Shown: piece by piece, positions 7,772 through 62,255 of the stretch | Layout: every line of letters starts with the position of its first letter | Numbering within the stretch: the first letter of the stretch is position 1 | NCBI GenBank assembly: GCA_002790095.1 | Contig: PFUL01000195.1 | Span: 1-62,341, forward strand | Reading direction: 5' to 3' | DNA: 62,341 nucleotides | Source: Elusimicrobia bacterium CG_4_9_14_3_um_filter_62_55 | Lineage (GTDB): Bacteria; Elusimicrobiota; Elusimicrobia; UBA1565 | The notes under the pieces: generated by a model | The model's database searches: none | Told to the model about the DNA's origin: nothing | The model's input: only the letters and a program-made list of their open reading frames with translations | Program-made: the position numbers and the translations under genes

Positions 7772-9502
7772 AAATCGGGGACCCGTCCGCAGGCAGCCGC
7801 CTTCGGCTTCAATAACGCGATCGAGCTCGCTGCGCCGGTGGAGGAGGACACGACCTCGGGTACGCTCGGTTTGCAGCTTGTAAAGCGGAATTACCAACTG
7901 CAGTTCGACTATACCTTCGAGGACTTCTCGAACTCCCTCTACGACCTGACCTGGGACAATCCGAAGCGGACGACGCCGCAGTATACGGGTACGCATTACG
8001 TGAACGGCGACGGATCGACGCAGGGGCAGATGGCGATGGCGCCGGACAATAAGGCGCACATGATGAAGGTCGAAGGCGGCGTGAACCTCGGCCGGACGAC
8101 GCGTCTGGGCTTCGAAGGGGGCTATCAGCGCTGGAGTTCGTTCAATCCGATGATGCCCTATACAAACAATCCGTACATCAACGGCTTGGCGGGCGCGCCG
8201 GCGGCCGCTCAGGCGAATACGCACGGCCTGACCTTCGACGCATCATCGCTCGACAGCCGGCCGGATCCGAACGTCCAGGGATTGATCGAAGTCTACACGT
8301 ACATGGCCAAACTGACTTCCCGTCCCTTCGACTGGCTGCGGGGTTCCCTTATCCATGAGGCGTACATCATGGAGAACGGCAGCAAGAAATACACGGTCCC
8401 GGGCTGGGCGGTGTTCGATCAGAACTGGCACGCGGAGACCACGCCGATCAACCCGACGCTGGAGCAGTTCCGCGACGACAAGACGAGCGTTAAGACGGAA
8501 TACGACTTCGCCTCTTGGCTGAGCGGCAATACCAGCGTTAGCCGCAAGTACATGAAAAAGACCCGCGCAGTGGACAAGGGTGTCGAGTACGAAGTAAACC
8601 AGGGATTTACGATCAAGCCGGCGAAGAATCTTTGGGTCAATCTCGGCTACCTCGTCAGCGGACGCAGGGCCAACGGCTGGGACTATCAGCATTACCCCAA
8701 AACCGTTTCCGGGGGCGTCGTGTACTTCAACGAATCCCCGGGTCTGATGCGCCCGGACGTCGCGGACCGCAATCGCCAACAGGGCCGGGTCCAGGTCCAG
8801 TGGATGCCCGGGGACGCGACCGTGAACCTGAGCGCGCGAATGACCGACGATAAATACCGCGGCGGCAAGAACCAGGACCTGACGGGCGGACGGCCGGAAA
8901 TCTATCCGGACCTGTTCGGCGTGCTCAGCGACCGGCATCAGTCGGTGGGGTTGGACACGAGCTTCGCGGTGACGAAGAATGTGGACGCGGACTTCTTCTA
9001 TGAGTACGACTTCCACCGTCAGTTCGTGCGTTCCTCCCAGACCGACACCCGCACGAATATCTTCGGCGCGGGGGGTACGGACCGGCTCATGGCTCAGCGC
9101 GTGCAGGACCGCTGGGACGCGCGCTTTACCGAGCATACGAACGTCATCGGGTGCGGCGTGACGCATCGGCCCACGGATAAGATGAAGAACAACATCGGCG
9201 TGGACCTGACCTTCACGCGTTCCAACGGCGATCCGATGACGCTCGGAAGCCGGAACTCGACGATGACGCCGCTCGAGACGAGCCGGCGGGTACGGCAGAC
9301 CCTAAAGGCGGGCAGTCAGTACAAGTTCACCAAGAACCTGACGCTGGCGGCGAACTATGTCTTCGATCGGTACCAGGCGAACGACTTCGCCTACACCGAC
9401 ATCCCGACGGTGATGGGCACCTCTTCGATGTTTCTCGGAGCGGATCCCATCAAGACGTATCTATTCCATAGTCTAGGGATGAGCATGAGTTACAAGTTCT
9501 AA
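7772..9502 (+). pseudogene. MtrB/PioB-like outer-membrane beta-barrel, N-terminus missing
   Basis: The frame is open from 7772 and reads AAAFGFNNAIELAAPVEED before the first possible start, a GTG at 7838. The protein-like sequence therefore begins before any start codon, and no signal peptide or ribosome site is present. What remains (about 575 codons) has alternating-residue beta-strand character, such as LQLVKRNYQLQFDYTFEDF, LGFEGGYQRWSSF, AKNLWVNLGYLVSG and TVNLSARMTDDKYRGG, and ends SMSYKF with the terminal phenylalanine typical of outer-membrane barrels. The pattern resembles the decahaem-associated MtrB/PioB porins that thread cytochromes through the outer membrane; those are nearer 700 residues, so roughly the first 100-150 are lost. 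It could be a deletion pseudogene or an assembly artefact. The downstream cytochrome genes fit an electron-conduit context. Confidence 0.65.
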
Positions 9503-9531
9503 TCGGCTCTCCCAGAGAGGAACAAAAATTG

Positions 9532-9555
9532 GGGGCGGCCCTTCGGGGCCGCCCC
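9532..9555 (+). terminator. intrinsic-type terminator after the barrel gene
   Basis: Perfect 9-bp stem GGGGCGGCC (9532-9540) / GGCCGCCCC (9547-9555) with a 6-nt CTTCGG loop, followed by TATTT. The U-tract is short, so efficiency is uncertain. It separates the barrel gene from the cytochrome operon, which has its own promoter. Confidence 0.7.
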
Positions 9556-9586
9556 TATTTCATGTTCTTTTTCCAGCCCTTTGCTG

Positions 9587-9600
9587 GGCGAAAGTGTTGC
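9587..9600 (+). promoter_or_regulatory. sigma-54-type promoter (-24 GG / -12 GC)
   Basis: GG at 9587-9588 and GC at 9599-9600 are separated by exactly 10 bases (GGCGAAAGTGTTGC, then TA). The predicted transcription start near 9612 is 5 nt before the ATG of the tetraheme cytochrome, so the mRNA would have almost no leader. Confidence 0.7.
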
Positions 9601-9616
9601 TAATTAGATAGTAGAT

Positions 9617-10204
9617 ATGAAGATGGGTATCGCGATGTTTGCGGCGTTTGTGGCCCTCGGTCTTTATTTTTCTCAGGCCGCGAAGCACGAATCCCCCGTG
9701 AAAGAGGCCGAAGCCATCCCGAAGGAGTGGTACGATCCCAAACCCGTGCGGCGCATTCGCGGCAAGTTGGAATTCGAAGGCATGGCCTGCACGACCTGCC
9801 ATTCGGAACCTCTCGAAGGCAACCCCAAGGACAAGGGCCAGTTCCACGAAACGATCAAGTTGGAACACGCGGCGCAGAAGAGAAACCGCTTCTGCTTTAA
9901 CTGCCACAACAACAAGAACTTCGACTCCTTCGCCGGCGCGGGCGGAGAGAGGATCGCGTACAAGGACGTCGCCGAACTCTGCTCCAAGTGCCACGGTCCG
10001 ATCTATCGCGATTGGAAGGCCGGCTCGCATGGACGCCGCAGCGGCTATTGGGATTTAAAGCAAGGCAAGCGCGAGGTGCTACAGTGCATCGCCTGCCACG
10101 ATCCGCATTCCCCGATGTTCAAGCCGATGAAGCCTGCCGGCCCTCCTCGAAGGCTGCACGAAATTCCGCACGAACCCAAAGGGGGGCATCCCGATGAGCA
10201 TTAG
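9617..10204 (+). CDS. tetraheme c-type cytochrome (CbcS-like)
   Basis: 195 residues with an N-terminal membrane anchor or signal (residues 3-20) and four haem motifs: CTTCH, CFNCH, CSKCH and CIACH. The gene overlaps the next one by 11 nt and precedes an FeS protein and an NrfD-type membrane subunit. The trio tetraheme cytochrome/FeS/NrfD is the make-up of the Geobacter Cbc4 (CbcSTU) menaquinol:cytochrome oxidoreductase. Here it would take electrons from quinol through the FeS subunit to periplasmic acceptors, or run in reverse. The outer-membrane barrel just upstream suggests an extracellular electron path, but that barrel gene is broken. Confidence 0.85.
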   Translation: MKMGIAMFAAFVALGLYFSQAAKHESPVKEAEAIPKEWYDPKPVRRIRGKLEFEGMACTTCHSEPLEGNPKDKGQFHETIKLEHAAQKRNRFCFNCHNNKNFDSFAGAGGERIAYKDVAELCSKCHGPIYRDWKAGSHGRRSGYWDLKQGKREVLQCIACHDPHSPMFKPMKPAGPPRRLHEIPHEPKGGHPDEH

Positions 10205-12423: not shown

Positions 12424-12618
12424 TCAAAGAACGCCGTGTCTCTTCAGATCTCGAAAAACATCGAAAACATAAAGAGAAGCGGCTAAGCCGTAGGAAGGGA
12501 TTCCGATCCCGCCGAAGAACCCTAGCGTCAGAGCGGTCGTTTTGAACAGTGCCGCCAGTCCCAGAATCGTCGCAAACAGCACCAATGCCAGCGAAAGTCG
12601 ACACAGCGGGGGAATCAT
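12424..12618 (-). CDS. small membrane protein after a NapC-like cytochrome
   Basis: 64 residues from the ATG at 12618, which follows GGAGGAAAG and overlaps the cytochrome stop (ATGA). Two hydrophobic spans are visible: LALVLFATILGLAALF, and a glycine-rich one beginning LTLGFFGGIGIPSYGL. I do not recognise the family. Tight coupling to the tetraheme cytochrome suggests a membrane partner or assembly factor. Longer versions reading upstream have no basis. Confidence 0.65.
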   Translation of the reverse strand: MIPPLCRLSLALVLFATILGLAALFKTTALTLGFFGGIGIPSYGLAASLYVFDVFRDLKRHGVL

Positions 12619-13106
12619 GTCTTTCCTCCAGGATGAGCCGGTCCGTGGCACTCGAGACATGAAAGCGTTCCCGCTTTGAGATCGGCCTTAATCTCGGCAT
12701 GCGCCGGTTGGATTTCAAACTGGGTTCCGCCTTCATGGCAGTGCAGGCAATTCTTGGAGCGGAAGGGTTTGTACAACGTCGGGCGTTCGTATTTCCTTTG
12801 GATGTAGAAGGCGAACGCGTGCCGCACGCTGCGGACCTTTGCGTCAACCTCCCCGAACCAGCCGTAGTCGATGTGGCAGCTGTAGCACTGCTGGTGAGGA
12901 ATCCATTTATTGGAAACGTGTTTGGAAGCGAGAAAATCGCTGTCGGGGTTCTTCGCATCCGCGACGAACGGCGTCATGACATGGCAGGACGCGCAGAACT
13001 CCATGCGTTTCGTCCTCTGGGTCCCGACTTCGAGCGTCGCGGTCGCGAAGGCGAGTGGGAAAAGAATGATCGCGAAAAAGAGCGTGAGCTTGGCGCGGGA
13101 ACTCAT
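12615..13106 (-). CDS. NapC/NirT/NrfH-like tetraheme cytochrome
   Basis: 163 residues with a single N-terminal membrane span (residues 6-23) and four CXXCH motifs: CASCH in the context MEFCASCHVM, CYSCH, CLHCH and CLECH. MEFCxxCH with a nearby methionine is the hallmark of the NapC/NrfH quinol dehydrogenase family, where the methionine can serve as a haem ligand. It is expected to take electrons from menaquinol to a periplasmic reductase. ATG 13106 is chosen because the preceding TTG has no support. A weak sigma-54-like motif lies upstream. Confidence 0.88.
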   Translation of the reverse strand: MSSRAKLTLFFAIILFPLAFATATLEVGTQRTKRMEFCASCHVMTPFVADAKNPDSDFLASKHVSNKWIPHQQCYSCHIDYGWFGEVDAKVRSVRHAFAFYIQRKYERPTLYKPFRSKNCLHCHEGGTQFEIQPAHAEIKADLKAGTLSCLECHGPAHPGGKT

Positions 13107-13121
13107 CAATCCCGCATCCTA

Positions 13122-13135
13122 GCACTATTGTTGCT
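13122..13135 (-). promoter_or_regulatory. weak sigma-54-like promoter for the NapC-like cytochrome
   Basis: On the minus strand AG-N10-GC (AGCAACAATAGTGC, then TA) has one change from GG at -24. The predicted start near 13110 would lie 4 nt before the ATG at 13106, as at the better copies. The element sits in a TAGCA...TGCTA inverted repeat, and the plus strand also reads AGCACTATTGTTGC, so orientation is ambiguous. Confidence 0.35.
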
Positions 13136-13163
13136 AAAGGAGAAACACTATTTCCGAATCGGT

Positions 13164-13628
13164 TTACTGCGCGCCCCGTTCATAGAGCCCGAGCATTTGA
13201 AAGCGCGTGGCATCCAGGCGTTCGGAGGTCGCCCGAACCAAACGGACTAGAACCTGATAGCCTAGTTCGTGATCCTCCTGCAGTAGGTTCCGTACGGCGT
13301 CGGCTTCGAAGACGACCAGTTCCGTGGGCCGAAGGGCGCGGGCGTCGAAACGCCAGAGATAGGGCTCGAACAACCAGGAGCAGCCGAGCAATTTCCCCGC
13401 TTCCAGCGTTTGTATCGGGGCGACCCGGGCCCCCGGTTGTTCGCTCTCGAGCATCACGCTCCCGGAATGCACGAGATAAAAACGGTCGGCGGGCTGCTTT
13501 TCTCGAAAAATATAATTGTCGGCATAAACTCGGGTCGGCCGGCAAAGGCGCGAGAGTTTCGTGAGGTGATCGGGGTGAAGGTCCGTCGAAAACGGGTGCG
13601 ATTTTAGAAGGCTCAGCATGGAATCCAT
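13164..13628 (-). CDS. cyclic-nucleotide-binding-domain protein without HTH
   Basis: 154 residues with the Crp/Fnr-type cupin fold: YIFREKQPADRFYLVHSGSVMLE near residues 38-60, GKLLGCSWLF, and a long C-terminal helix ending RFQMLGLYERG. There is no DNA-binding domain; the protein stops where the dimer helix of Crp would end. ATG 13628 is chosen over the TTG at 13646 because the sigma-54-type promoter at 13643-13656 predicts transcription from about 13631. It sits directly downstream of an NtrC-type activator gene, so a sensory or modulating role is plausible. The ligand is unknown. Confidence 0.8.
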   Translation of the reverse strand: MDSMLSLLKSHPFSTDLHPDHLTKLSRLCRPTRVYADNYIFREKQPADRFYLVHSGSVMLESEQPGARVAPIQTLEAGKLLGCSWLFEPYLWRFDARALRPTELVVFEADAVRNLLQEDHELGYQVLVRLVRATSERLDATRFQMLGLYERGAQ

Positions 13629-13642
13629 ACTCAGCCTGTTAA

Positions 13643-13656
13643 GCAACGGAAATGCC
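13643..13656 (-). promoter_or_regulatory. sigma-54-type promoter for the cNMP-binding-fold gene
   Basis: Minus strand GGCATTTCCGTTGC followed by TTA: GG and GC are 10 bases apart. The predicted start near 13631 is 3 nt ahead of ATG 13628. It fixes the start codon of the gene downstream. Confidence 0.68.
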
Positions 13657-13662
13657 GCGTGA

Positions 13663-15054
13663 TTACTTCCTTTTAAGTTTTTTCTTTTTTTCCGTCGCCT
13701 CTGATTTCGGGGCGCCGTATTCCTTCAGTTTTCTCCACAGCGTATTGCGTCCAATCCCGAGGGCCTTCGCCGTTTCCACCTGATTTTCGCCGCAGGCCGC
13801 GAAGACGCCGAGGATATGTTCGCGTTCGACCGAGTCGAGCGGGCGGATCGTCGGTCCGGCCCCGCCTGCGGTTCTGACTTCCGGCGGCAAATCATCGAGG
13901 CCGATTTCTTCGTTCGGGGCCAGGATCACGGCGCGTTCGATCGCGTGCTCGAGTTCGCGAACGTTGCCGTGCCAGCGATACGCCTTCAGCGCCTCGGCCG
14001 CTTGAGTCGAATACCGGCAGGCTTTCGACTTGTGCTTGCCGTGGGCGAGCTTCAAGAAGCGTTCGGCAAGAGGGAGGATGTCGTCGGGGCGATCGCGCAG
14101 CGGTGGAATTTCAATCGGAAAGACGTTGAGGCGATAGTAGAGATCTTCGCGGAAGCCGCCGATCTGCATTTCGGCGCGAAGGTCCTTGTTGGTCGCTGCG
14201 ACGACGCGGGCGTTGATCTTTATGTTCCGGTTCTCTCCGACTCGGCGGACTTCCCCTTCCTGCAGCGCCCGCAGCAGCTTGACCTGAAGGGGAGGGGACA
14301 TTTCTCCGATTTCGTCGAGGAAAATCGTGCCGTCGCGCGCTTCTTCGAAAAGCCCGCGCTTTTGGGTTACGGCTCCGGTGAACGCGCCGCGCGCGTGCCC
14401 GAAGAGTTCGCTTTCCAGCAGTCCTTCGGGAAGGGCGCCGCAATTCACCGCGACGAACGGATGGTCGCGGCGCGAGCTCGCCTCGTGGATGGCGCGGGCG
14501 ATCAATTCCTTGCCGGTGCCGGACTCGCCCTGAATCAACACCGACGCGTCGGTTCCGCCGACTTTCCGAACGAGATCCAGAATGTTGTGAAAGGCGGAAC
14601 TGGCGTAGACGATGTTGTCGAGGCTGAACTTCCCGCGAACCTGGGCCCGAAGCTGCTCGACTTCCCGCAGCAGGCGCTGACGCTCCAGGGCCTTTTCGAT
14701 GCTGATCTGGAGGGCCTCGGGTTCGATGGGTTTGGTCAGATAATCGAAGGCGCCTCCCTTCATCGCGCGGACCGCGGAATCGATGGAGCCGTGACCGGTG
14801 ATGACGATCACCTGGGCCTCGGGAGAGCGGCGGCGGGCCTCCGCGAGAACTTTAAACCCGTCGACGGGCTTCATTTTAATGTCGGTGAGTACCAAGTCGA
14901 ACGGTCCCTTCGTGAGAGCCGCGCAGGCCTTCTCACCGTCGGGGACCGCCGTGACCTCCAGGCCCAGTCGCTTAAGTTCCAACGAGGTGACGGTGCGTTG
15001 GGAGAGATCGTCCTCCGCGTAGAGGACGGTCGCTTTGAAGGTTGTTTCGGTCAT
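13663..15054 (-). CDS. NtrC-family sigma-54 activator (REC-AAA+-Fis)
   Basis: 463 residues. Receiver domain 1-120 with acidic pocket EDD at 14-16, phosphoacceptor D58 and K108. AAA+ domain with Walker A GESGTGKE at 176-183, the sigma-54-contacting GAFTGA loop at 223-228 and a [11 protein letters not shown] Walker B. C-terminal Fis-type helix-turn-helix ([17 protein letters not shown]) and a lysine-rich tail. GAFTGA is intact, so it should activate sigma-54 holoenzyme when phosphorylated by the adjacent kinase, whose gene overlaps by 4 nt. It is the obvious activator for the GG-N10-GC promoters in the window. Confidence 0.95.
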
Positions 15055-16685
15055 ACGGCCTCCGAGTTGCGAAGCGGGATCTGGATGGAAAACAAGGCGC
15101 CGCCGGACGCAGCGGATTCGACGCCGATGCGGCCTCCGTGGGCGGAGACGACGCGTTCGGCAACCGGCAGTCCCAAGCCGGTGCCTCGTTCCTTCGTCGT
15201 GTGAAAGGGTTCAAAAACGGCCTCGCGGTGCCCGTCCGGGATCCCGGGTCCGTTGTCTTCGATCTCGACTAAGAGATGCCCGTCGCGGGCGCGGGTTCGT
15301 ACGGTCAGGATTCCTTTGCCGTCCATGGCCTGGAGGGCGTTGATTACGATGTTCCAGAAAACCTGCCGCAATTGGTCCCCATCGGCCAAAACGAGCGGAA
15401 GGGCCTCATCGAGTTTGACGCGAAATTCCACGCCGGCTGCCAATGAGTCGTCCGCCGCGGTCAATTTTATGATCTCGGAAAGGACGGCGTTGATGTCGGC
15501 GTCGGCCAAGTGCAATTCTCGCGGGCGCGCGTACTGGAGAAACTGGGAGAGCGTGTCGCCGAGACGCTTGCTTTCCTTCCCGATGACTTCGGTGAGCGTG
15601 TCGTGGTCTTCATCGGAAAGATCATGGCGGTTGAGACTGCGCGCCGCCGTGACGATCGAACCGAGCGGGTTTCGAATTTCATGCGCCATTACAGCCGCCA
15701 TCGATCCGACGGCGGCGAGGGATTCGCTTTTAGCGAGGCGGCGCTGGAGTTCTTCCTGTTCGGAAAGATCCACCGCGCTCGAGACGAAGCCGACGATGCG
15801 GCCGCGATCGTCCAGCACCGAGGTGATGGAAAGCAACATCGGAACCTCTTCCCCCGCTTTCGTGCGGTTGATGACGCGTCCGCGCCAGAACCCTTTCGAC
15901 GGGTCGAGGATGTCGCCCCACAGCCGTTTGTACATCGTTGGAGACGAGTGGGGCGAGCGGACGACGCGAGGCGTGTTCCCGATCACCTCGTCCCGGCGGA
16001 ATCCGAAGCGCTTGAGGAAGGCCTCGTTGACTTCCTGGATGAATCCGTCCCGATTCGTGTAAAACATGGAGTCGTTCGAGTTCTGAAACGCCTGGTAAAA
16101 CGCGAGCGCACGACGTTCCAGGAGATGCTGGGCTGTCAAATCCCGGCCGATCAGCAGCATGATGTCCTCGTCCGGCCCCGAGGACATCGGCGTGGCTCGG
16201 ATTTCGACCTCGATGGGTTTTTGGTCCCGTCCGAGGAGCATCGTGACCCGGGTCGCGCGGCCGTGGTGCCGGGCGGAGCGGAAAAGGCGTTCGAGCGCGC
16301 CTTCCTCTTCGCGGGAGGCGAGCAAAGACGCGAAGGCGCAATCCCTCAATTCGTCGCGTCCGCGCCCCAGCAGACGGGCCGCACCCGCATTGACATCAAG
16401 CACCTTCCCCGTACGGCAGTCGTGAATCAAAATCATGTCCGAGGCGGTGTCGTAGAGGCGGCGATACAAGGCGGCCTCATCGGCCAATCCGGCCTCGGCG
16501 CCGATGGTGAGGGCTTTGCGCGCGGAGGCCGATCCAACCAGCAGCGCCATTCCCAACGCGCCGATCCAAGGGAGATTCGATGCAGCCCCACCGGGGATTT
16601 CATGAAGCAGGAGGGCAAAAATGATCAAGCCGCCTCCGGTCCACGCGCTCCAACGCAATTTTGATTTCAGCGAATCTGCCCGCAT
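15051..16685 (-). CDS. PAS-domain sensor histidine kinase
   Basis: About 544 residues from ATG 16685 (an in-frame ATG at 16724 is possible). Two membrane spans within the first 60 residues are joined by a very short loop, so sensing is probably cytoplasmic. Two PAS domains follow (DTASDMILIHDCRTGKV and NSNDSMFYTNRDGFIQEV), then HisKA with the phospho-accepting MAHEIRNPLGSI, and HATPase_c with NALQAMDGKG, DNGPGIP and GTGLGL. It overlaps the response regulator by 4 nt and is divergent from the RpoN-like gene. The signal is not evident; no haem- or flavin-binding residues stand out. Confidence 0.92.
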   Translation of the reverse strand: MRADSLKSKLRWSAWTGGGLIIFALLLHEIPGGAASNLPWIGALGMALLVGSASARKALTIGAEAGLADEAALYRRLYDTASDMILIHDCRTGKVLDVNAGAARLLGRGRDELRDCAFASLLASREEEGALERLFRSARHHGRATRVTMLLGRDQKPIEVEIRATPMSSGPDEDIMLLIGRDLTAQHLLERRALAFYQAFQNSNDSMFYTNRDGFIQEVNEAFLKRFGFRRDEVIGNTPRVVRSPHSSPTMYKRLWGDILDPSKGFWRGRVINRTKAGEEVPMLLSITSVLDDRGRIVGFVSSAVDLSEQEELQRRLAKSESLAAVGSMAAVMAHEIRNPLGSIVTAARSLNRHDLSDEDHDTLTEVIGKESKRLGDTLSQFLQYARPRELHLADADINAVLSEIIKLTAADDSLAAGVEFRVKLDEALPLVLADGDQLRQVFWNIVINALQAMDGKGILTVRTRARDGHLLVEIEDNGPGIPDGHREAVFEPFHTTKERGTGLGLPVAERVVSAHGGRIGVESAASGGALFSIQIPLRNSEAV

Positions 16686-16754
16686 TCTAAAAAGAATATA
16701 GCAAATTCGCTTTTGGAACAGCATGACCCATTTTGGCGCAGGGTTTGTACGATT

Positions 16755-16768
16755 GGCATAATTGTTGC
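16755..16768 (+). promoter_or_regulatory. sigma-54-type promoter of the RpoN-like gene
   Basis: GGCATAATTGTTGC followed by TA, preceded by T: the closest copy in the window to TGGCAC-N5-TTGCW. The predicted start near 16780 is 5 nt before ATG 16785. It suggests that the sigma-54-like factor is made from a sigma-54 promoter, i.e. positive autoregulation. Confidence 0.75.
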
Positions 16769-16784
16769 TATTAATATTGATGCG

Positions 16785-17897
16785 ATGGAACAAAAAATGC
16801 GGATGGATCAATCGTTGAAGCCCGAGAGCGTGCAGGTGCTCCAGGGGAGACTCGCGGCGGCAAAATGGCTCTCGATGTCCGAACCGGAAGTGGCTCGGGA
16901 AGCGTCGGATATCGAAGGGGACCCTTTGTTTCGCGAGTTAGTCTATGGGGATCAGGGCCGATCCCCGCTGGTCAAGCGCCGACGCTGGCCCGCGGCGGAA
17001 CTTCATCAGGGGTTTTACGAACTGAAAGAAGAACTGGCGGCAGGAGACGGTTCGGGAGACATTCACGATCTGATCGAAAAGCACGAGGACCTGGTCGGCT
17101 GCATCCGAAAGATCGGCCAAGTGAACTTCGAGCGATACTTCCTGGTCGGTGATACCGATGAAAGTTTTGAAAGCGTCTGCGAAATCGTCGGAGTGAAGCA
17201 GGACGTCGGGCGGAAAATTCTGGATCTTGTTCTTGAGATTGGGGCCCGTTCCGAATTCTTCCGTCCGGGACGCGTGCCGGAGACGGCGGGGGTGCGATAC
17301 AGCTGCATCGCCGAGATCGAACGCGATCCTCGGGAGACCGACGGGTTGTTCTTTCGTTTCTTCGCTCCGCATTGGGCCCGGGGGCGCTACGAGATCCAAT
17401 ACGATCGCCTCGAGGATTGGAAAAAGCATCGCGACTTGACCGTGGGTGAGCGCCGAGATCTGAGAAAACTCCTCAAACGCATTGAGATGCTCAACATGCG
17501 CCAGGACACGCTGTTTCAGATTCTCTCCCGGTCCTCGACGGAGCAGAGCGTGTTTCTGCGCAGCCGCCGCCGCGAACGCCTGCGCCCGCTCAGCCTTCGC
17601 GAATTGGCGCGCCGCATCGGCGTCGCGCCCAGCACCGTGAGCCGGGCGATCTCCCGCCGCTCCGTCGTGCTTCCGTGGGGGGAAGAGGTCCCGCTGAAGT
17701 ATCTGCTCACGGGGCAGCGCGAGGTGCTTCTTGAAATCTTGAAGGAGTGGCGCAGAACGGGTATCATGCGCCCCGGAATCACCGACGAGTCCTTGATGGT
17801 CCGTTTGGCGGAAGAGGCGGGTATCACGGTCTCCCGCCGGACGGTCAACGAGTGTCGGCGCAAACTGACTAGCGTCTCAGAGGAGGTCGTGCTATGA
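16785..17897 (+). CDS. divergent RpoN (sigma-54)-like factor
   Basis: 370 residues against about 480 for typical RpoN. The N-terminus (SLKPESVQVLQGRLAAAKWL, then SEPEVAREASDIEGDPLF) follows the region I pattern, but with most of the usual glutamines and leucines replaced. The acidic region II is essentially absent. A reduced core-binding part follows. The C-terminal DNA-binding part is recognisable: LRELARRIGVAPSTVSRAI near residues 268-290 matches the RpoN helix-turn-helix, and SRRTVNECRRKL near 349-360 matches the RpoN box (ARRTVAKYRE). ATG 16785 is chosen from the promoter position; the upstream GTG at 16713 is not supported. Its start overlaps no gene, and its stop overlaps the CBS gene. 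Whether it replaces or supplements a canonical RpoN cannot be told from this window. Confidence 0.8.
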   Translation: MEQKMRMDQSLKPESVQVLQGRLAAAKWLSMSEPEVAREASDIEGDPLFRELVYGDQGRSPLVKRRRWPAAELHQGFYELKEELAAGDGSGDIHDLIEKHEDLVGCIRKIGQVNFERYFLVGDTDESFESVCEIVGVKQDVGRKILDLVLEIGARSEFFRPGRVPETAGVRYSCIAEIERDPRETDGLFFRFFAPHWARGRYEIQYDRLEDWKKHRDLTVGERRDLRKLLKRIEMLNMRQDTLFQILSRSSTEQSVFLRSRRRERLRPLSLRELARRIGVAPSTVSRAISRRSVVLPWGEEVPLKYLLTGQREVLLEILKEWRRTGIMRPGITDESLMVRLAEEAGITVSRRTVNECRRKLTSVSEEVVL

Positions 17898-18364
17898 CCT
17901 GGAAATCCAAGAAGGCGAAGGACGTGATGCACAAGCGGGTCGTCGTGGTCCGGCCGGAGATGCTCGTTCAGGAAGTTGCCAAGCTTTTCGACGACAAGGG
18001 GATCAGCGGAGCGCCGGTCGTGGACGTGGAAGGCCATCTCCTGGGCGTCGTTTCCAAGAGCGACTTGGTCCACCATCAGCGCGACGGAGAATCCGACCAT
18101 TTCTCGTTCTACAAGGCCGGCAGCGGAGTCGAGGTGCTTCCTAAAGGCTATCACATGGAACTACCGGACCGGACCCGCGTTCGCGAGATCATGACCCCCG
18201 TGATTATTCAGGCGAAGGAATCCACTCCGGTTCCGCACATCGCCCGAATGATGCGCCGTAAGCACATCCACCGTGTCTTCATCATGGACGGCAAGAAGAT
18301 GAAGGGAGTCGTGACGACGATGGACTTGCTCAAGCTTATTGAAGAGGGTTCCGAGAGGAACTAA
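17894..18364 (+). CDS. tandem CBS-domain protein
   Basis: 156 residues with two CBS motifs: AKDVMHKRVVVV, then GISGAPVVDVEGHLLGVVSKSDLV, and VREIMTPVIIQAKEST, then HIHRVFIMDGKKMKGVVTTMDLL. CBS pairs bind adenosyl nucleotides and report energy state. The start follows AGAGGAGG and overlaps the RpoN-like stop by 4 nt. Its place between a sigma-54-like factor and an acetyl-CoA enzyme suggests a nucleotide-sensing regulator of that operon; the target is not known. Confidence 0.9.
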   Translation: MTWKSKKAKDVMHKRVVVVRPEMLVQEVAKLFDDKGISGAPVVDVEGHLLGVVSKSDLVHHQRDGESDHFSFYKAGSGVEVLPKGYHMELPDRTRVREIMTPVIIQAKESTPVPHIARMMRRKHIHRVFIMDGKKMKGVVTTMDLLKLIEEGSERN

Positions 18365-18365
18365 G

Positions 18366-20270
18366 ATGGCGATCAAGACGGTCTCCGCGGAGAAGGCGCT
18401 CCGGCCGATCCGGAGCGGAATGCGGGTGTTCGTCGGATCCGGCGCGGCGCAGCCCCAGCATCTGGTCGAGGCTCTCAGCGTCCGTGCCGGGACTCTTAGG
18501 GACGTCGAGGTCCTTCACCTCTTGACGCTGGGCGCCGCGCCTTATTCCGCGGGCGCGCGCGAGAGCCGTCTGCGCCACAACGCGCTGTTTATCGGCGCCA
18601 ACGTGCGAAAGGACGTCAAGGCCGGCTTCGCCGACTATACGCCGTGCCGTCTTTGGGATATTCCGAAGTTTTTTAGATCCGGTCGTTTGGGTTTGGACGC
18701 GGCGTTGGTGCAGGTGAGTCCTCCCCGGGCCGGGCGGGTTTCTCTGGGGGTCGCGGTGGACATCGTCAAAACGGCGATCGAAACCGCTTCTTACGTCGTC
18801 GGCCAGATCAATCCGAAGATGCCGTGGACGCACGGCGCCTCCACGGTCCCGCTTTCGGCGTTTCATGCCCTGGTCGAGCGGGAAGAGGATCTTTGCGAAT
18901 TGCCGATTCCGGAACTTACGCCTGACGCGCTTTGGATCGGACGCTACGCGGCCCGCCTGATTCCGGACGGGTCGACCATTCAACTCGGCATCGGCGCGAT
19001 CCCCGATGCGGTTCTCGCAGCTCTGTCGAAGAAGAAGAATCTCGGGATTCATTCCGAGATGATCTCCGACGGAGTGCTCGCGCTGATCGAAAAGGGCGTC
19101 CTCAACGGAAAGAAGAAGACCCTGCATCCCGGAAAAATCGTCACTTCGTTCTGCCTCGGGACCAAAGCCCTCTACGACGCGGTGGACCGTAATCCGATGT
19201 TCGCGTTCCATCCGACCGAGTACACGAACGACCCGGAAGTGATCGCAAAAAACGACCGGATGGTATCGATCAATTCCGCTCTGGCCGTGGATCTGACGGG
19301 CCAGGTCGCCGCCGATTCCCTCGGACATCAGTTTTACAGCGGCGTGGGGGGACAGGTCGACTTTGTGCGCGGGGCGCTTCGCGCGAAGAACGGCCGTTCG
19401 ATCATCGCTTTGCCCTCGACCGCCAAGGGCGGAGAGGTTTCTCGAATCACGCCGGCGCTGATGCCTGGAACGGGGGTCGTCACTCCGCGCTCGGACGTCG
19501 ATTTCGTCGTCACCGAGTACGGCATCGCCAGTCTGCGCTGCAAGACCATACGAGAGCGGGCGATCGCCTTGATTCAAATCGCAGCACCGCGGTTTCGCGA
19601 GGGACTGCGGCGGGCCGCCGAGAACGCGGGGCTGATCGATCAAGGACATATTTTTCCCGCGGGAGGGGACCGCTACGAAGTGGACTACGAGACCCGCCAG
19701 CGCATCGACGGTGTTTCCGTCGCCTTCCGGCCGTTGAAACCCACCGATGAGCGCAAGCTTAAGGAATTGTTCTACAGCCAGTCGCCGGAGACGACCTTGA
19801 TGCGCTTCGGCCTGCCGCTGCGCTCTCTCGAGGAGCACCAATTTCAGAAACTCGTCGCGATCGACTACGAGAACTCTCTGGCCATCGGCGCTTTCGTTAA
19901 AAAAAAGGGCGGCCGTGAGCGTCTGATAGGGGTCGCCCGCTACTTCGCCGAGCCGGGAGAGGAGTTCGCCGAAGCGGCGTTCACCGTGCACGACAACTAT
20001 CAGGGACGCGGCTTCGGACGGTTCATGGTCGAGTTTCTCTCTTGGATCGCCGGCAAGCGGGGGCTCAAGGGTTTCCGGGCGGAAGTGCTGACTGTCAACA
20101 CCGCGATGCAAAAGGTTTTCGACAAGGTGTTCATGAAAACCCGCACGCACGGCGATATGGCCGAGCGCGTGGTCAGGATGGCGTTCGAGGATTTGCGCCG
20201 GAGGGGGAATCCCGCGACGGGGGACGCGCAGGGCGGACGGAGGAGGCATGTCGCGGCCGCGGCGGCATAA
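18366..20270 (+). CDS. acetyl-CoA hydrolase/transferase fused to GNAT acetyltransferase
   Basis: 634 residues from ATG 18366, which follows GAGAGGA, 1 nt after the preceding stop. Residues 1-430 are an acetyl-CoA hydrolase/CoA-transferase (GSGAAQPQHLVEAL, STIQLGIGAIPDAVL, VTEYGIASLRCKT with the catalytic glutamate region, GGQVDFVRGA). Residues 450-634 are a GNAT domain with EAAFTVHDNYQGRGFGRFMV, containing the acetyl-CoA-binding Q-x-x-G-x-G. This fusion occurs in other bacteria. Together they suggest acetate/acetyl-CoA exchange coupled to an acetylation step, in keeping with the PFOR nearby. Confidence 0.9.
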   Translation: MAIKTVSAEKALRPIRSGMRVFVGSGAAQPQHLVEALSVRAGTLRDVEVLHLLTLGAAPYSAGARESRLRHNALFIGANVRKDVKAGFADYTPCRLWDIPKFFRSGRLGLDAALVQVSPPRAGRVSLGVAVDIVKTAIETASYVVGQINPKMPWTHGASTVPLSAFHALVEREEDLCELPIPELTPDALWIGRYAARLIPDGSTIQLGIGAIPDAVLAALSKKKNLGIHSEMISDGVLALIEKGVLNGKKKTLHPGKIVTSFCLGTKALYDAVDRNPMFAFHPTEYTNDPEVIAKNDRMVSINSALAVDLTGQVAADSLGHQFYSGVGGQVDFVRGALRAKNGRSIIALPSTAKGGEVSRITPALMPGTGVVTPRSDVDFVVTEYGIASLRCKTIRERAIALIQIAAPRFREGLRRAAENAGLIDQGHIFPAGGDRYEVDYETRQRIDGVSVAFRPLKPTDERKLKELFYSQSPETTLMRFGLPLRSLEEHQFQKLVAIDYENSLAIGAFVKKKGGRERLIGVARYFAEPGEEFAEAAFTVHDNYQGRGFGRFMVEFLSWIAGKRGLKGFRAEVLTVNTAMQKVFDKVFMKTRTHGDMAERVVRMAFEDLRRRGNPATGDAQGGRRRHVAAAAA

Positions 20271-27596: not shown

Positions 27597-28055
27597 TTAT
27601 GCCTTAGCGGTCTTGGCGTGCTTGGCGTCCATTGCGTTCGCGAAGGCCGCGATCGTGATCGTCGAGAGCGCTTCGAGCAGGCCGCGCTCGGCTTGGACGA
27701 CGCGATCGTGCAGCGGACACGGAGCGTCCGAGGAGCAGGCCGCGACGTCGACGAGGCAGGTCCGCGGACCGTCGTCGACGGGTTCCACGAGTTCGATGAT
27801 CTTGGAGACCATCGTAAAGCGCGGGTCCACCGCCAGTCTCACGCCGCCGTGACGCCCGCGACGGCTCTCGACCACGCCGGCATGGGTTAGTTTTTGGAAC
27901 AGTTTCGCCAGATAACCCGAAGGAATTTTCGTTTTCATCGAAATCACGTCGGTCATCAAAAACCCCTCTTCCCGTCGGGAAGCGAGATACGCCAGCGCGT
28001 TCATCGCGTAGCGGGCCGATTTCGAGAGTCCGATCAACGGAATTTCCGGAGTCAT
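27597..28055 (-). CDS. Rrf2-family FeS transcription regulator
   Basis: 152 residues with the Rrf2 winged helix (LSKSARYAMNALAYLA, KTKIPSGYLAKLFQKLTHAG, RGRHGGVRLA) and three cysteines in C-x6-C-x5-C (CLVDVAAC, then SSDAPC). In NsrR and IscR a triad at this place binds an FeS cluster that senses nitric oxide or FeS status. With nitrogen-oxide enzymes nearby an NsrR-like role is attractive but not proven. It has its own sigma-54-type promoter and probably drives or regulates the porin that follows. Confidence 0.88.
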   Translation of the reverse strand: MTPEIPLIGLSKSARYAMNALAYLASRREEGFLMTDVISMKTKIPSGYLAKLFQKLTHAGVVESRRGRHGGVRLAVDPRFTMVSKIIELVEPVDDGPRTCLVDVAACSSDAPCPLHDRVVQAERGLLEALSTITIAAFANAMDAKHAKTAKA

Positions 28056-28070
28056 GTGTCCTCTTTAAAA

Positions 28071-28084
28071 GCAACGGAAGCGCC
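28071..28084 (-). promoter_or_regulatory. sigma-54-type promoter of the Rrf2-porin operon
   Basis: Minus strand GGCGCTTCCGTTGC followed by TTTT, preceded by T. GG and GC are 10 bases apart. The predicted start near 28059 is 4 nt before ATG 28055, which would leave the AGAGGA upstream of the start mostly untranscribed. Confidence 0.7.
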
Positions 28085-28113
28085 ACGCCTCGTGCAACGG
28101 AGGGGGCGGTGGG

Positions 28114-29493
28114 CTAAATGGGTTCGAAGCGGGCCGTAAAATGTCTCAGCCATGGCTCCTGGGAAACGATCTTGTACCCGCGCAGCTCTTTTGCGCGGGA
28201 CGCGACGTCCGCGATCACTTCCGCGGTGTAGTCGATGTGGCTTTGGGTATACGTGCGCCGTGGAATCGCGAGCCGGACCAGTTCCATCGTCGACGGTGTT
28301 TCGGTTCCGTCCTTGAGGCGTTTTCCGAACATCACCGATCCGATCTCCACGCCGCGCACGCCCCCGGCCCGGTAGAGTTCGATCGCCAAGGACTGCGCCG
28401 GGTATTGATCCGCCGGGATGTGGGGCAAAAAGGATTTCGCGTCGATGTACACCGCGTGGCCGCCGGCGGGCCGGACGATGGGAACGCCGGCCGCGAGGAT
28501 CTTTTCGGCTAAGTAGGCGGTCGAGCGGATGCGGTAGCGCAAATAGGATTCCTCGAGAACTTCCTCGAGTCCGGTGGCGACAGCTTCCAAGTCATACCCG
28601 GCCATCCCTCCGTACGTTGAAAACCCCTCGGTCAAAATAAGCAAGTTGCGGCAGCGCCTCGCCAATTCAGAATCCTTCATCGCAAGGAAGCCGCCGATGT
28701 TCGCCATGGCGTCCTTCTTCGCGGACATCGTGCAGCCGTCGACGAGGCGGAACATCTCGCGGGCGATTTCCCGCGGACTGCGTCCGTTTTGTCCTTCTTC
28801 GCGCGTCTTGATGAAGTAGGCGTTCTCGGCGAAGCGGCACGCGTCGAGAAACAGCGGCACGCGGTGCTTGTCGCAAACCGCGCGGACCTTGCGCAGGTTG
28901 TCCAAGGAAACGGGCTGCCCGCCGCCGGAGTTGTTGGTCACGGTGACCATGACCAAAGGGACTCTCTCGCGGCCGTGTTCGGTCAGGTACCGGTCCAACG
29001 CGTCGACGTCCATGTTCCCCTTGAACGGGTGCTCCGAGGAGGGATCCCTTCCTTCCGGGATCACGAGGTCCACGGCCTCGGCGCCGGAAAATTCGACGTT
29101 CGCACGAGTCGTGTCGAAATGCGTGTTGTTGAGAATCGCCTTTCCGGGGCCTCCGATCGATGAAAATAAAATCCACTCAGCCGCTCGACCTTGATGGGTG
29201 GGGATGACCTCGCTCATCCCGGTGAGATCGGTGACCACTTCAAGGAATCTATAAAAGGAACGGCTGCCCGCGTAGCTCTCGTCGCCCATCATAATCCCGG
29301 CCCATTGGCGGTTGGACATCGCCCCGGTCCCGGAGTCGGTCAAGAGGTCGATGATCACGTCGTCGGCGTGGAGTCCGAAGAGGTTGAAGCCGGCTTCCTT
29401 CAGGGCGGCCTCCCTTCGCTCAGGGTCGGGGAAGTTCAGGGATTGGGTGCTGTGGATGCGAAACGGCTCGATAATCGTTTTAAATTTGGGCAC
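28114..29493 (-). CDS. tnaA: tryptophanase
   Basis: 459 residues from a GTG. PLP enzyme of the tryptophanase/tyrosine phenol-lyase family, with the Schiff-base lysine in TMSAKKDAMANIGGFL. Two positions separate the two enzymes. The C-terminus is LRHFTARF, with the histidine of tryptophanase (His463 in E. coli) rather than phenylalanine. The GVRGVEIGS segment has isoleucine where tyrosine phenol-lyase has arginine. It should cleave L-tryptophan to indole, pyruvate and ammonia, feeding PFOR. No tnaC-like leader or tnaB permease is seen; it has its own sigma-54-type promoter. Confidence 0.88.
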   Translation of the reverse strand: MPKFKTIIEPFRIHSTQSLNFPDPERREAALKEAGFNLFGLHADDVIIDLLTDSGTGAMSNRQWAGIMMGDESYAGSRSFYRFLEVVTDLTGMSEVIPTHQGRAAEWILFSSIGGPGKAILNNTHFDTTRANVEFSGAEAVDLVIPEGRDPSSEHPFKGNMDVDALDRYLTEHGRERVPLVMVTVTNNSGGGQPVSLDNLRKVRAVCDKHRVPLFLDACRFAENAYFIKTREEGQNGRSPREIAREMFRLVDGCTMSAKKDAMANIGGFLAMKDSELARRCRNLLILTEGFSTYGGMAGYDLEAVATGLEEVLEESYLRYRIRSTAYLAEKILAAGVPIVRPAGGHAVYIDAKSFLPHIPADQYPAQSLAIELYRAGGVRGVEIGSVMFGKRLKDGTETPSTMELVRLAIPRRTYTQSHIDYTAEVIADVASRAKELRGYKIVSQEPWLRHFTARFEPI

Positions 29494-29505
29494 GATTATC
29501 TTAGG

Positions 29506-29519
29506 GCAACGAAATTTCC
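29506..29519 (-). promoter_or_regulatory. sigma-54-type promoter of tnaA
   Basis: Minus strand GGAAATTTCGTTGC followed by CCTAAG. The predicted start near 29494 is the base before the GTG at 29493, so the mRNA would be leaderless. Its -24 GG is only two bases from that of the divergent promoter at 29522. Confidence 0.68.
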
Positions 29520-29521
29520 AT

Positions 29522-29535
29522 GGCCAGGCTGTTGC
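29522..29535 (+). promoter_or_regulatory. sigma-54-type promoter of the tatA-mobA-moaA-napA operon
   Basis: GGCCAGGCTGTTGC followed by TTTAAA; GG-N10-GC. The predicted start near 29547 leaves a 17-nt leader that contains GCGGAGG, a good ribosome site for tatA at 29564. Back to back with the tnaA promoter around a shared CCATGG centre. Confidence 0.7.
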
Positions 29536-29563
29536 TTTAAAACGGATGCGGAGGTCTTAATTT

Positions 29564-29725
29564 ATGCTGCCAAATCTTGGTACGGGAGAATTGTTGATCT
29601 TACTGGCGCTCGGACTGCTCGTTTTCGGGGCTAAAAAGGTTCCTGAAATCGCGCGTTCGATCGGGAAGTCCGTCAATTCTTTCAAGGCGGGAATGCGAGA
29701 AGAGGCGGACCCCGAAAACCGATGA
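29564..29725 (+). CDS. tatA: Tat translocase subunit TatA
   Basis: 53 residues: an N-terminal membrane helix (GTGELLILLALGLLVFGAKK), the conserved FG hinge, and an amphipathic helix VPEIARSIGKSVNSFKAGMR. Short but complete for the TatA/E family; the usual long acidic tail is reduced to EEADPENR. TatA forms the export channel for folded proteins, needed for the Tat-signal molybdoenzymes and FeS proteins in this window. Preceded by GCGGAGG; its stop overlaps the mobA start (ATGA). Confidence 0.93.
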   Translation: MLPNLGTGELLILLALGLLVFGAKKVPEIARSIGKSVNSFKAGMREEADPENR

Positions 29726-34068: not shown

Positions 34069-34170
34069 AGCGTTCGGTGTCGGATCGCTTGATTGCGCAT
34101 CCGTTCCAAAACGGGTCGCTTCGTTTGGCGTATCGTTCGACGCCTCCGGTGGAACCGTAATTTTGACGCT
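34069..34170 (+). other. intergenic stretch upstream of nxrA promoter
   Basis: No gene or terminator recognised. It precedes the promoter at 34171 by up to 100 bases, the usual place for activator sites of NtrC-type proteins. I see no clear inverted repeat that recurs upstream of the other promoters. Confidence 0.4.
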
Positions 34171-34184
34171 GGCGCGAGTGTTGC
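34171..34184 (+). promoter_or_regulatory. sigma-54-type promoter of the nxr operon
   Basis: GGCGCGAGTGTTGC followed by GTTAAT, preceded by CT. GG-N10-GC. The predicted start near 34196 gives a 73-nt leader ending in GGGAGG before ATG 34269, the only long leader among the eleven good copies. Confidence 0.7.
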
Positions 34185-34268
34185 GTTAATTGGGTATCGA
34201 CCAAAATCGGACTCTCGTGTCCGAATTCGACGCGTCGACCGTGAATTCGTTCGACCGAGGGAGGCTTC

Positions 34269-41046: not shown

Positions 41047-41091
41047 GCTTCGCTAACTGAGCGGGGTGGAAGGATTGAAGTCTTACCGGAT

Positions 41092-41105
41092 GGAATTTAT
41101 GTTGC
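41092..41105 (+). promoter_or_regulatory. sigma-54-type promoter of the napGH-act supercluster
   Basis: GGAATTTATGTTGC followed by TATA, preceded by T. The predicted start near 41117 is directly before ATG 41118, so the first gene would be leaderless. All genes from 41118 to 60445 run in this direction with overlaps or short gaps, so much of the cluster may depend on it. Confidence 0.7.
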
Positions 41106-41117
41106 TATATAGATTAC

Positions 41118-41753
41118 ATGCCGGTGTCACGTCGAGATTTCCTTAAAAACACTGCGTTTGTCTGTGTCGCTCTCGGTACAGGGATTGGCTTGGCGCGTCC
41201 GGTTGATGCCGGCACGGACCCGATGCGCCCTCCAGGGGCGCTTCCGGAAGAGGAATTCCTTTCGGTGTGCATCCGATGCCGCCGCTGCGGCGACGCGTGT
41301 CCGAATCAATGCATCGCGCCCTACACGCCCGAAGCGGGGCGGCGCTTCTCGATGAAGCCGGGAAGCGCCGAGGAAGGGACGCCGGTGATTTTTCCCCGCC
41401 AGCAGGCGTGCAACCTGTGCCAGAAAACGCCCGGCGATGCGCTCGCGTGCACGGATGCCTGTCCGACGGGAGCCCTACGATTGGTGAAAAAGACGGCTGC
41501 GGAGATTCGGGAGAAGGTCCGGATGGGCGTCGCGGAAGTGGATACGAATCTCTGCTGGTCTTACAACGGCAGTTCCTGCGGGGTTTGCGTGAAGGCCTGC
41601 CCGTTCGAAGGCAGCGCGCTGCGGGCGGGGCAATTGGAAACCCCTTTGCTCGATCCGGAATTCTGCGTGGGCTGCGGATTATGCGAACGCGCCTGCATCC
41701 GCTATCCGCAGGCGATCACGATCCGGCCGGTCGCGCGAGGAGCTGCCGCGTGA
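41118..41753 (+). CDS. NapG-like Tat-exported ferredoxin
   Basis: 211 residues with a Tat signal (VSRRDFLKNTAF) and four [4Fe-4S] cysteine groups: CIRCRRCGDACP, CNLC plus CTDACP, CGVCVKACP, and CVGCGLCERAC. This is the NapG layout; in Nap systems NapG and NapH pass electrons from menaquinol to periplasmic acceptors. Overlaps the NapH-like gene by 4 nt. No own RBS is needed if the transcript is leaderless. Confidence 0.9.
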   Translation: MPVSRRDFLKNTAFVCVALGTGIGLARPVDAGTDPMRPPGALPEEEFLSVCIRCRRCGDACPNQCIAPYTPEAGRRFSMKPGSAEEGTPVIFPRQQACNLCQKTPGDALACTDACPTGALRLVKKTAAEIREKVRMGVAEVDTNLCWSYNGSSCGVCVKACPFEGSALRAGQLETPLLDPEFCVGCGLCERACIRYPQAITIRPVARGAAA

Positions 41754-51076: not shown

Positions 51077-51593
51077 TCGCGATTTTCTCGTGGGCGTTTT
51101 CGTATGCGAACAGGATCTCCTCGCCGCGACGCACGCCGCGCGCGAGGCAGGATTCAAGATCCACGACGCCTATACCCCTTACCCGGTTCACGGAATGGAT
51201 GAGGCGATGGCCCTTCCCAAGACGCTCCTTCCGCGACTGTGCTTCCTATTCGGGGCGGCGGGATTGCTGCTCGCCGTCCTATTCCAGTGCTGGGTCGGCT
51301 TGATCGACTGGCCGATGAATATCGGAGGGAAAAGTTTCGGAGCGCGACCCGCCCTGATCCCGATCGCCTTCGAGTTGACCGTTCTCTTCGCTGGATTGGG
51401 GACGGTTATTTCCTTCCTCGTCCTGCGCCGGCTCTTCCCCGGCCGGGAGCCCGAGTGCGCAGGCCTCGGCGCGAGCGACGCGAGTTTCGTGCTCGCGTTC
51501 GCGACACCGGAAACCGAGCAGTTGAGGGGAACGCTGAATCGCCTGCTGCTGGAGCGCGGGGCGAAATCCGTTCGCGAGGCGTCGTCCCGATGA
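51069..51593 (+). CDS. actD: alternative complex III ActD (DUF3341)
   Basis: 174 residues. [20 protein letters not shown] and [13 protein letters not shown] identify DUF3341/ActD, followed by two membrane spans (near 55-78 and 95-118) and a short cytoplasmic tail. A structural subunit of the complex. It overlaps actC and actE. Confidence 0.93.
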
Positions 51594-62177: not shown

Positions 62178-62208
62178 TTTTTGCCTCCGAGAAGCTGCAT
62201 TTTGTTTA

Positions 62209-62222
62209 GCAACACAAAGACC
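62209..62222 (-). promoter_or_regulatory. sigma-54-type promoter of the diiron gene
   Basis: Minus strand GGTCTTTGTGTTGC followed by TAAAC, preceded by T. The predicted start near 62197 leaves a 20-nt leader with a GGAGG ribosome site before ATG 62177. Divergent from the copy at 62224. Confidence 0.68.
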
Positions 62223-62223
62223 A

Positions 62224-62237
62224 GGCCATACTGTTGC
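62224..62237 (+). promoter_or_regulatory. divergent sigma-54-type promoter
   Basis: GGCCATACTGTTGC followed by TATG. The predicted start near 62249 is 2 nt before an ATG at 62251, the same leaderless geometry as elsewhere. The gene it should drive is cut almost at once by intron-like sequence. Confidence 0.62.
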
Positions 62238-62255
62238 TATGACTTTTGTCATGTC

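What the first reader, a model, noticed from the sequence alone, without database searches (positions are those of the whole stretch)
16785..17897. Shrunken, divergent RpoN homologue in the regulon it may control
The protein has the RpoN helix-turn-helix and an altered RpoN box (SRRTVNECRRK), but lacks region II and has a poor region I. Its own promoter is the best copy of the motif. A modified sigma-54 could explain the extra YG in the -12 side, i.e. a dedicated sigma-54 variant with its own promoter class.
Basis: partly seen in the sequence, partly recalled or inferred. Interest (0 to 1): 0.85.

Follow-up and report, generated by a model that had tools for sequence, protein, structure and literature searches.

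The report
Shrunken sigma-54 with its own promoters
An uncultured Elusimicrobiota bacterium replaces the usual gene-switching protein sigma-54 with two strongly shortened versions; the one here sits beside its own two-component activator genes and has an extended promoter sequence of its own in front of anaerobic-respiration genes, and nearly the whole phylum lacks the standard form.

Summary
The gene at 16785-17897 (370 aa) is a real, strongly shortened sigma-54. Pfam sees only the DNA-binding domain. Its predicted fold matches only sigma-54 structures, and profile alignment shows that region I (the activator-responsive part) and a remnant of one core-binding (CBD) repeat survive. Across 295 Elusimicrobiota genomes, 115 carry a sigma-54 DNA-binding domain but only one has a canonical CBD; presence follows that of the sigma-54 activators (111 genomes have both, 176 neither).

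Paralog A sits in a conserved divergent cassette with an NtrC-type activator (GAFTGA loop intact) and a histidine kinase. It has its own promoter class, TGGCM-N4-YGTTGCW at canonical -24/-12 spacing. A matrix trained only on relatives' rpoN-A promoters finds sites directly upstream of rpoN-A, tatA, tnaA, Rrf2, CRP-like, cytochrome and ferredoxin genes in this window. No such sites lie near paralog B.

Most likely a divergent sigma-54 running an anaerobic/nitrate-respiration regulon. Core binding without a standard CBD, and the cause of the YG, remain inferred.

The parts
16785..17897 (+). rpoN-A: shortened sigma-54, 370 aa
   Evidence: Sigma54_DBD 3e-15; fold matches only sigma-54 with significance; orthologs 57-61% identical
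16785..16949 (+). region I (activator-interacting) homologue, residues 1-55; helices 13-30, 33-45, 47-54
   Evidence: hhalign 20.9 vs max 14.1 in 200 shuffles; model; not seen by Pfam AID
17055..17261 (+). helical remnant of the core-binding domain, residues 91-159; resembles one CBD repeat
   Evidence: hhalign to the second CBD repeat 26.9 vs max 16.7, a match of 22 columns; no PF04963 match
17442..17543 (+). extra-long helix (ELH), residues 220-253
   Evidence: model, 34-residue helix, pLDDT above 90; profile alignment to 5ui5
17595..17651 (+). helix-turn-helix for the -12 element, residues 271-289 (APSTVSRA)
17832..17861 (+). RpoN box SRRTVNECRR, residues 350-359
   Evidence: aligned to canonical ARRTVAKYRE-type box
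16754..16770 (+). -24/-12 promoter of rpoN-A, TGGCATAATTGTTGCTA
   Evidence: 20.1 bits with matrix trained without the window; same element upstream of orthologs
13663..15054 (-). cognate bEBP candidate: receiver + Sigma54_activat + Fis HTH, GAFTGA intact
   Evidence: adjacent to rpoN-A across relatives
15051..16628 (-). histidine kinase (PAS-PAS-HisKA-HATPase), divergent from rpoN-A (start by gene model)
17894..18364 (+). CBS-domain protein, overlapping the rpoN-A stop; linked in relatives
18366..20270 (+). acetyl-CoA hydrolase/transferase with GNAT domain; linked in relatives
9586..9602 (+). promoter-like site (13.4 bits), -12 C 17 nt before the cytochrome c7 gene at 9617
13120..13136 (.). 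palindromic site TAGCACTATTGTTGCTA; minus strand (11.3 bits) faces the NapC/NirT-type cytochrome gene 12615-13106
13641..13657 (-). promoter-like site (12.1 bits) upstream of a cNMP-binding (CRP-like) gene 13164-13628
28069..28085 (-). promoter-like site (13.1 bits) upstream of the Rrf2 regulator 27597-28055
29504..29520 (-). promoter-like site (13.9 bits) upstream of a tryptophanase-like gene 28114-29493
29521..29537 (+). promoter-like site (16.7 bits) upstream of tatA 29564-29725
34170..34185 (+). TGGCGCGAGTGTTGCG, -12 C 85 nt before the nitrate-reductase-like catalytic subunit 34269
41091..41107 (+). promoter-like site (15.8 bits) upstream of a 4Fe-4S protein gene at 41118
62207..62239 (.). 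divergent pair of sites (13.0 bits minus, 17.2 bits plus); the minus one faces a rubrerythrin-like gene 61152-62177

Best explanation
RpoN-A is a working sigma-54 of a reduced architecture typical of Elusimicrobiota. Region I is kept, the long linker and most of the core-binding domain are gone, and the ELH, helix-turn-helix and RpoN box are kept. Inferred mechanism: it joins core RNA polymerase through region I, the ELH and the CBD remnant; it places the enzyme on -24/-12 promoters of the form TGGCM-N4-YGTTGCW; it holds a closed complex until the neighbouring phosphorylated NtrC-type activator, driven by the PAS histidine kinase, remodels region I with its GAFTGA loop. It controls its own gene and an anaerobic or nitrate-respiration regulon (Tat export, cytochromes, iron-sulfur proteins, Rrf2 and CRP-like regulators, tryptophanase). 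Paralog B is a second such sigma with another kinase and probably another promoter class. Shown by computation: homology, retained parts, absence of canonical RpoN, the conserved cassette, the motif and its placement. Inferred: core binding, activator dependence, pairing of sigma and activator, and the cause of the YG.
For: DBD profile 3e-15; family profile against PDB gives sigma-54s at the top (best 1.8e-31), followed only by a few weak HigA matches at E above 0.01. AlphaFold pLDDT 85.6, first 26 Foldseek hits all sigma-54; paralog B gives the same. Region I and a CBD repeat above all 200 shuffled controls. No AID or CBD in the genome; CBD over the cut-off in 1 of 295 genomes, DBD in 115. 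Activators track short RpoN: 111 both, 4 and 4 discordant, 176 neither; at least 60 of 150 short rpoN lie within 6 kb of an activator gene. Five activators in the genome have GAFTGA. Divergent cassette conserved. Promoter in front of orthologs; matrix trained on them finds 11 sites of 12 bits or more in the window against 2.05 in shuffles, 8 of 10 classifiable ones at a sense start, P 2.6e-12. TGGC-N7-TTGC: 16 sense sites, against 0 at N5 and N6 and 1 at N8. YG 33/37 vs 33/172, P 7e-16.
Against: No biochemical evidence of core binding; the CBD match is only 22 columns, and the segment before the ELH gives no significant match. Foldseek TM-scores for the sigma-54 hits are low (0.24-0.37 for the query), which I put down to a different domain arrangement. 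Some orthologs have no recognisable site upstream (L045, L048, L075, L076). Strict genome-wide motif counts are not above the reversed-pattern control (8 against 15), so the regulon outside this contig is small or more degenerate. Genomes are related, so the co-occurrence P value overstates independence. Two gene models (tatA, and the start at 41118) were adjusted by hand before the placement test.
Confidence: 0.8

Rival explanations
1. It is a decayed or repurposed RpoN that only binds -24/-12 DNA, acting as a repressor or decoy, and no longer forms a holoenzyme.
For: The canonical core-binding domain is not recognisable; NCBIfam rpoN_sigma scores 66 bits, far below its 277-bit cut-off.
Against: It and its paralog are the only sigma-54 relatives in a genome with five GAFTGA activators, and activators and short RpoN come and go together across the phylum. 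Region I, useless to a repressor, is retained.
Confidence: 0.08
2. The motif is an operator of another DNA-binding protein (for instance the CRP-like or Rrf2 regulator) and not a sigma-54 promoter.
For: Some sites are palindromic (13120 in the window; 71 and 1230 in L070).
Against: Most sites are not palindromic: in a palindrome the G before TTGC would be matched by a C at the mirror position, which is C in only 3 of 37 (frequencies). The orientation is nearly always TGGC distal and TTGC proximal to the start, and only the exact GG-N10-GC spacing is enriched.
Confidence: 0.07
3. The YG is a local sequence preference of this clade (or of the activator) and paralog A itself has ordinary promoter specificity.
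For: Causality is untested; short RpoN outside clade A can have sites without YG (L023 TGGCAAGATGATTGC).
Against: YG is nearly fixed next to TTGC in sites chosen without regard to it (33/37 against 19% in coding), and none of the B loci shows such sites.
Confidence: 0.25

Closest known systems
Canonical sigma-54 (RpoN), E. coli and Aquifex aeolicus (PDB 5ui5, 8f1k, 7qwp)
   Same: Region I, ELH, helix-turn-helix, RpoN box; GG-N10-GC promoters; partner activators with GAFTGA
   Different: 370 instead of about 440-500 residues; CBD reduced to a remnant, short linker, altered RpoN box (NECRR for AKYRE), extended -12 element YGTTGC, no canonical copy in the cell
Specialised RpoN paralogs of Cereibacter (Rhodobacter) sphaeroides, RpoN1-RpoN3 (PMC11999139)
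   Same: Several sigma-54 in one cell, each with its own activator and gene set; promoter discrimination near the -12 element (position -11)
   Different: The Cereibacter copies are counted as RpoN by a Pfam-based survey (PMC12316311), so they carry recognisable domains; here both paralogs are shrunken and the extra specificity lies just upstream of TTGC
Truncated RpoN of Neisseria (PMC12316311, PMC3162934)
   Same: A reduced RpoN
   Different: Neisseria lost DNA-binding helices, lacks an obvious activator and is called inactive; here DNA-binding parts and activators are kept and the CBD is reduced

Membership tests
sigma-54 (RpoN) | Sigma-54 DNA-binding domain with HTH and RpoN box | tested here: met
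   PF04552 3e-15, above cut-off; 30/30 relatives
sigma-54 (RpoN) | Sigma-54 fold (ELH, HTH, RpoN domain) | tested here: met
   First 26 PDB hits of the model all sigma-54
sigma-54 (RpoN) | Region I / activator-interacting domain | tested here: met
   Not seen by Pfam AID, but profile alignment exceeds 200/200 shuffles and the helical hook is in the model
sigma-54 (RpoN) | Core-binding domain PF04963 | tested here: not met
   No match in this protein or the genome, over the cut-off in only 1 of 295 genomes; only a remnant of one repeat
sigma-54 (RpoN) | NCBIfam rpoN_sigma equivalog cut-off | tested here: not met
   66 bits against 277
sigma-54 (RpoN) | -24/-12 promoters with GG-N10-GC spacing | tested here: met
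sigma-54 (RpoN) | Partner bEBPs with GAFTGA loop | tested here: met
   Five in the genome, one adjacent
sigma-54 (RpoN) | Binds core RNA polymerase; ATP- and activator-dependent initiation | not testable with these tools
   Needs in vitro transcription

The most novel reading that the evidence does not exclude
Elusimicrobiota have a second architectural class of sigma-54 that binds core RNA polymerase without the canonical core-binding domain, duplicated into paralogs wired to their own kinase-activator cassettes, the A paralog reading an extended -12 element (YGTTGC).
Probability: 0.6. Interest if true: 0.85.

Novelty: new variant of a known kind. Interest (0 to 1): 0.74.

Why it matters
Sigma-54 is regarded as one conserved protein with three functional domains, and a 2025 survey identifies it by Pfam matches to all three (PMC12316311), which would miss the proteins described here. 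A phylum running its sigma-54 network without a recognisable core-binding domain gives a natural minimal sigma-54 and makes testable which parts are needed for holoenzyme formation and for holding the closed complex. The paralogs with their own cassettes and promoters give a second natural case, after Cereibacter, for how sigma-54 specificity evolves.

Tried and rejected
Pattern with the wrong spacer (TGGC-N7-GTTGCT) gave 0 genome hits, my error. The strict pattern TGGC-N6-GTTGCT is not enriched genome-wide (8 against 15 in the reversed control), though 3 of 8 fall in this window and one stands about 24 nt before a plausible ATG of the kinase-activator operon on contig C119 (start judged by eye). 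The loose canonical pattern in the window is at chance (30 against 28.3). A promoter class for paralog B was looked for and not found. The full 30-member alignment was too diverse for the search for related loci. The single genome-collection scan used patterns taken from clade A, so it says little about occurrence outside the phylum. Papers: nothing found on a reduced sigma-54 in Elusimicrobiota; most subscription papers are not in the library.

Full report
WHAT IS THERE. The frame 16785-17897 encodes 370 aa. Against Pfam only Sigma54_DBD matches above its cut-off (3e-15, residues 233-362). Of 30 relatives gathered from the phylum, 30/30 have the DBD, and neither AID nor CBD is among the 25 most frequent families at E<=1 (families matched by only one or two members may not be shown). 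NCBIfam rpoN_sigma matches all 30, but the window protein has 66 bits against a cut-off of 277. The relatives align from end to end with one architecture (alignment A1).

IS IT A SIGMA-54. A profile of the family searched against PDB sequences brings up sigma-54 chains first, best 5ui5 (Aquifex RpoN) at 1.8e-31 over profile positions 162-362, followed only by a few HigA antitoxins at E above 0.01. The AlphaFold model (30 sequences, pLDDT 85.6) shows an N-terminal helical hook (13-30, 33-45, 47-54), a low-confidence linker (78-91), a small helical bundle (91-159), strands (173-204), a 34-residue extra-long helix (220-253), the HTH and the RpoN domain. Its first 26 PDB matches are all sigma-54. 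Paralog B, modelled apart, gives the same. To ask which lost-looking parts survive, I aligned sub-profiles with a canonical set (six plasmid-collection rpoN plus L011) against 200 column-shuffled controls: region I 20.9 against at most 14.1; the helical bundle 26.9 (second CBD repeat) against at most 16.7; the segment before the ELH not significant. So region I is diverged but retained, the CBD is reduced to a remnant resembling one repeat, and the linker is short. Domain roles are taken from PMC7057263.

NO CANONICAL COPY. The host genome (4.31 Mb, 95% complete) has two DBD matches, this gene and a 343-aa paralog on contig C188, and no match to CBD or AID. Record titles of close relatives name Elusimicrobia. 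Over 295 genomes of the phylum, 115 have a DBD match (53 with one, 50 with two, 12 with three or four), but only G070 has a CBD over the cut-off, and that genome has a full-length rpoN. Sigma-54 activators follow the short RpoN: 111 genomes both, 4 DBD only, 4 activator only, 176 neither (Fisher 1e-70, overstated because genomes are related). An earlier survey notes that Elusimicrobium minutum lacks sigma-54 (PMC3162934), which fits the small-genome family here that lacks both. At least 60 of 150 listed short rpoN lie within 6 kb of an activator gene (a lower bound because the list was cut).

TWO PARALOGS. In the tree (quick method, SH-aLRT only) the window protein falls in clade A with orthologs from its family (99) and B sequences form another clade (100); the same genomes hold both. 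Clade A has a conserved divergent cassette: activator and kinase on one side, rpoN-A on the other, often followed by the CBS protein, acetyl-CoA hydrolase, MobA, MoaA, tryptophanase and Rrf2 genes. In several f1 genomes paralog B is followed by an overlapping gene of about 645 aa, a histidine kinase in the host genome, and in L055 and L057 it stands next to an activator. The five strong activators of this genome have GAFTGA; those beside rpoN-A in relatives have GAFTGA, GSFTGA or GSYTGA.

THE PROMOTER. Upstream of rpoN-A, orthologs carry TGGC-N7-TTGC in the sense direction: L041, L044, L049, L053, L056, L058, L070 and L077; L045, L048, L075 and L076 do not. A matrix built from these eight, window left out, gives 11 sites of 12 bits or more in the window against 2.05 expected (largest 5 in 20 shuffles). 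Of ten that can be classified, eight are intergenic with the -12 C 13-32 nt before a sense start; 2.2% of positions qualify by chance, P 2.6e-12. They precede a cytochrome c7, a CRP-like gene, rpoN-A, Rrf2, tryptophanase, tatA, a 4Fe-4S protein and a rubrerythrin-like gene. In relatives' A loci the sites precede rpoN-A, CBS, tryptophanase, MobA, pyruvate:ferredoxin oxidoreductase, universal stress and receiver-domain genes. The B loci have none at 14 bits or more. The spacing test over A loci gives 16 sense TGGC-N7-TTGC against 0, 0, 1, 0 at N5, N6, N8, N9.

THE EXTRA YG. To avoid circularity I chose sites on TGGC and TTGC alone (one mismatch allowed outside GG and GC), with no condition on the spacer. 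Upstream sites have Y in 36/37 and G in 33/37 just before TTGC; sites inside genes have 90/172 and 57/172 (YG 33/37 against 33/172, Fisher 7e-16).

HOW IT PROBABLY WORKS. The kinase senses a redox or nitrate-related signal and phosphorylates the activator, which remodels region I of RpoN-A bound with core polymerase at -24/-12; the sigma also raises its own expression. The gene content of the contig (nitrate-reductase-like molybdoenzymes, NrfD, multihaem cytochromes, molybdenum-cofactor genes) points to anaerobic respiration. The signal, the pairing and core binding are inferred. The closest precedent for sigma-activator pairs with differing promoters is Cereibacter sphaeroides, where position -11 matters (PMC11999139).

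NOVELTY. A new variant of a known kind: it works like a sigma-54 and is homologous to it, but fails one defining domain test (CBD). A 2025 survey that identifies RpoN by all three Pfam domains at strict thresholds does not mention Elusimicrobiota and would miss these proteins (PMC12316311).

LIMITS. MAGs, no expression data, only one collection scan with clade-A patterns, so occurrence outside Elusimicrobiota is untested; gene starts are model-based and two were adjusted by hand.

Noticed in passing
window 9586, 13641, 16754, 28069, 29504, 41091: In six sites the -12 C lies only 13-17 nt before the predicted start codon. If transcription starts 12 nt downstream, these mRNAs would be leaderless or nearly so, and for Rrf2 a Shine-Dalgarno-like AGAGGA would lie upstream of +1.
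   Followed up: partly
L011 (G070), canonical rpoN: The only full-length sigma-54 among 295 Elusimicrobiota genomes; the same genome has no activator at E<=1e-25. Possibly transferred or contaminant.
   Followed up: no
L061 3868-4890 and relatives: Paralog B (SVxNR in place of STVSR in the HTH; box SRRSVAQYR) is followed by an overlapping histidine kinase gene (weak 7TM and GAF matches); its promoter class was not found.
   Followed up: partly
own genome, contig C119 (L063 position 11169, minus): TGGCAGAGTTGTTGCT stands about 24 nt before a plausible ATG of a second kinase-activator operon, a possible link between paralog A and another activator.
   Followed up: partly
own genome: The pattern with one extra spacer base (TGGC-N7-GTTGCT) has 0 matches while its reversed control has 30, which might mean avoidance of mis-spaced sites.
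   Followed up: no
window 31303-60445: A long run of molybdoenzyme, NrfD, multihaem cytochrome, iron-sulfur and ethylbenzene-dehydrogenase-like haem genes: a large respiratory cluster, including a protein with up to seven cytochrome c domains at 51590-53938.
   Followed up: partly
L058 8579-9626: This relative's rpoN-A matches in two pieces (8579-8797 and 8838-9626) and two frames of the locus match the family profile: a possible frameshift or assembly error.
   Followed up: no
L070 71-87 and 1230-1246: In this relative the sites are nearly perfect palindromes (TGGCAATTTTGTTGCCA), unlike in the others.
   Followed up: no
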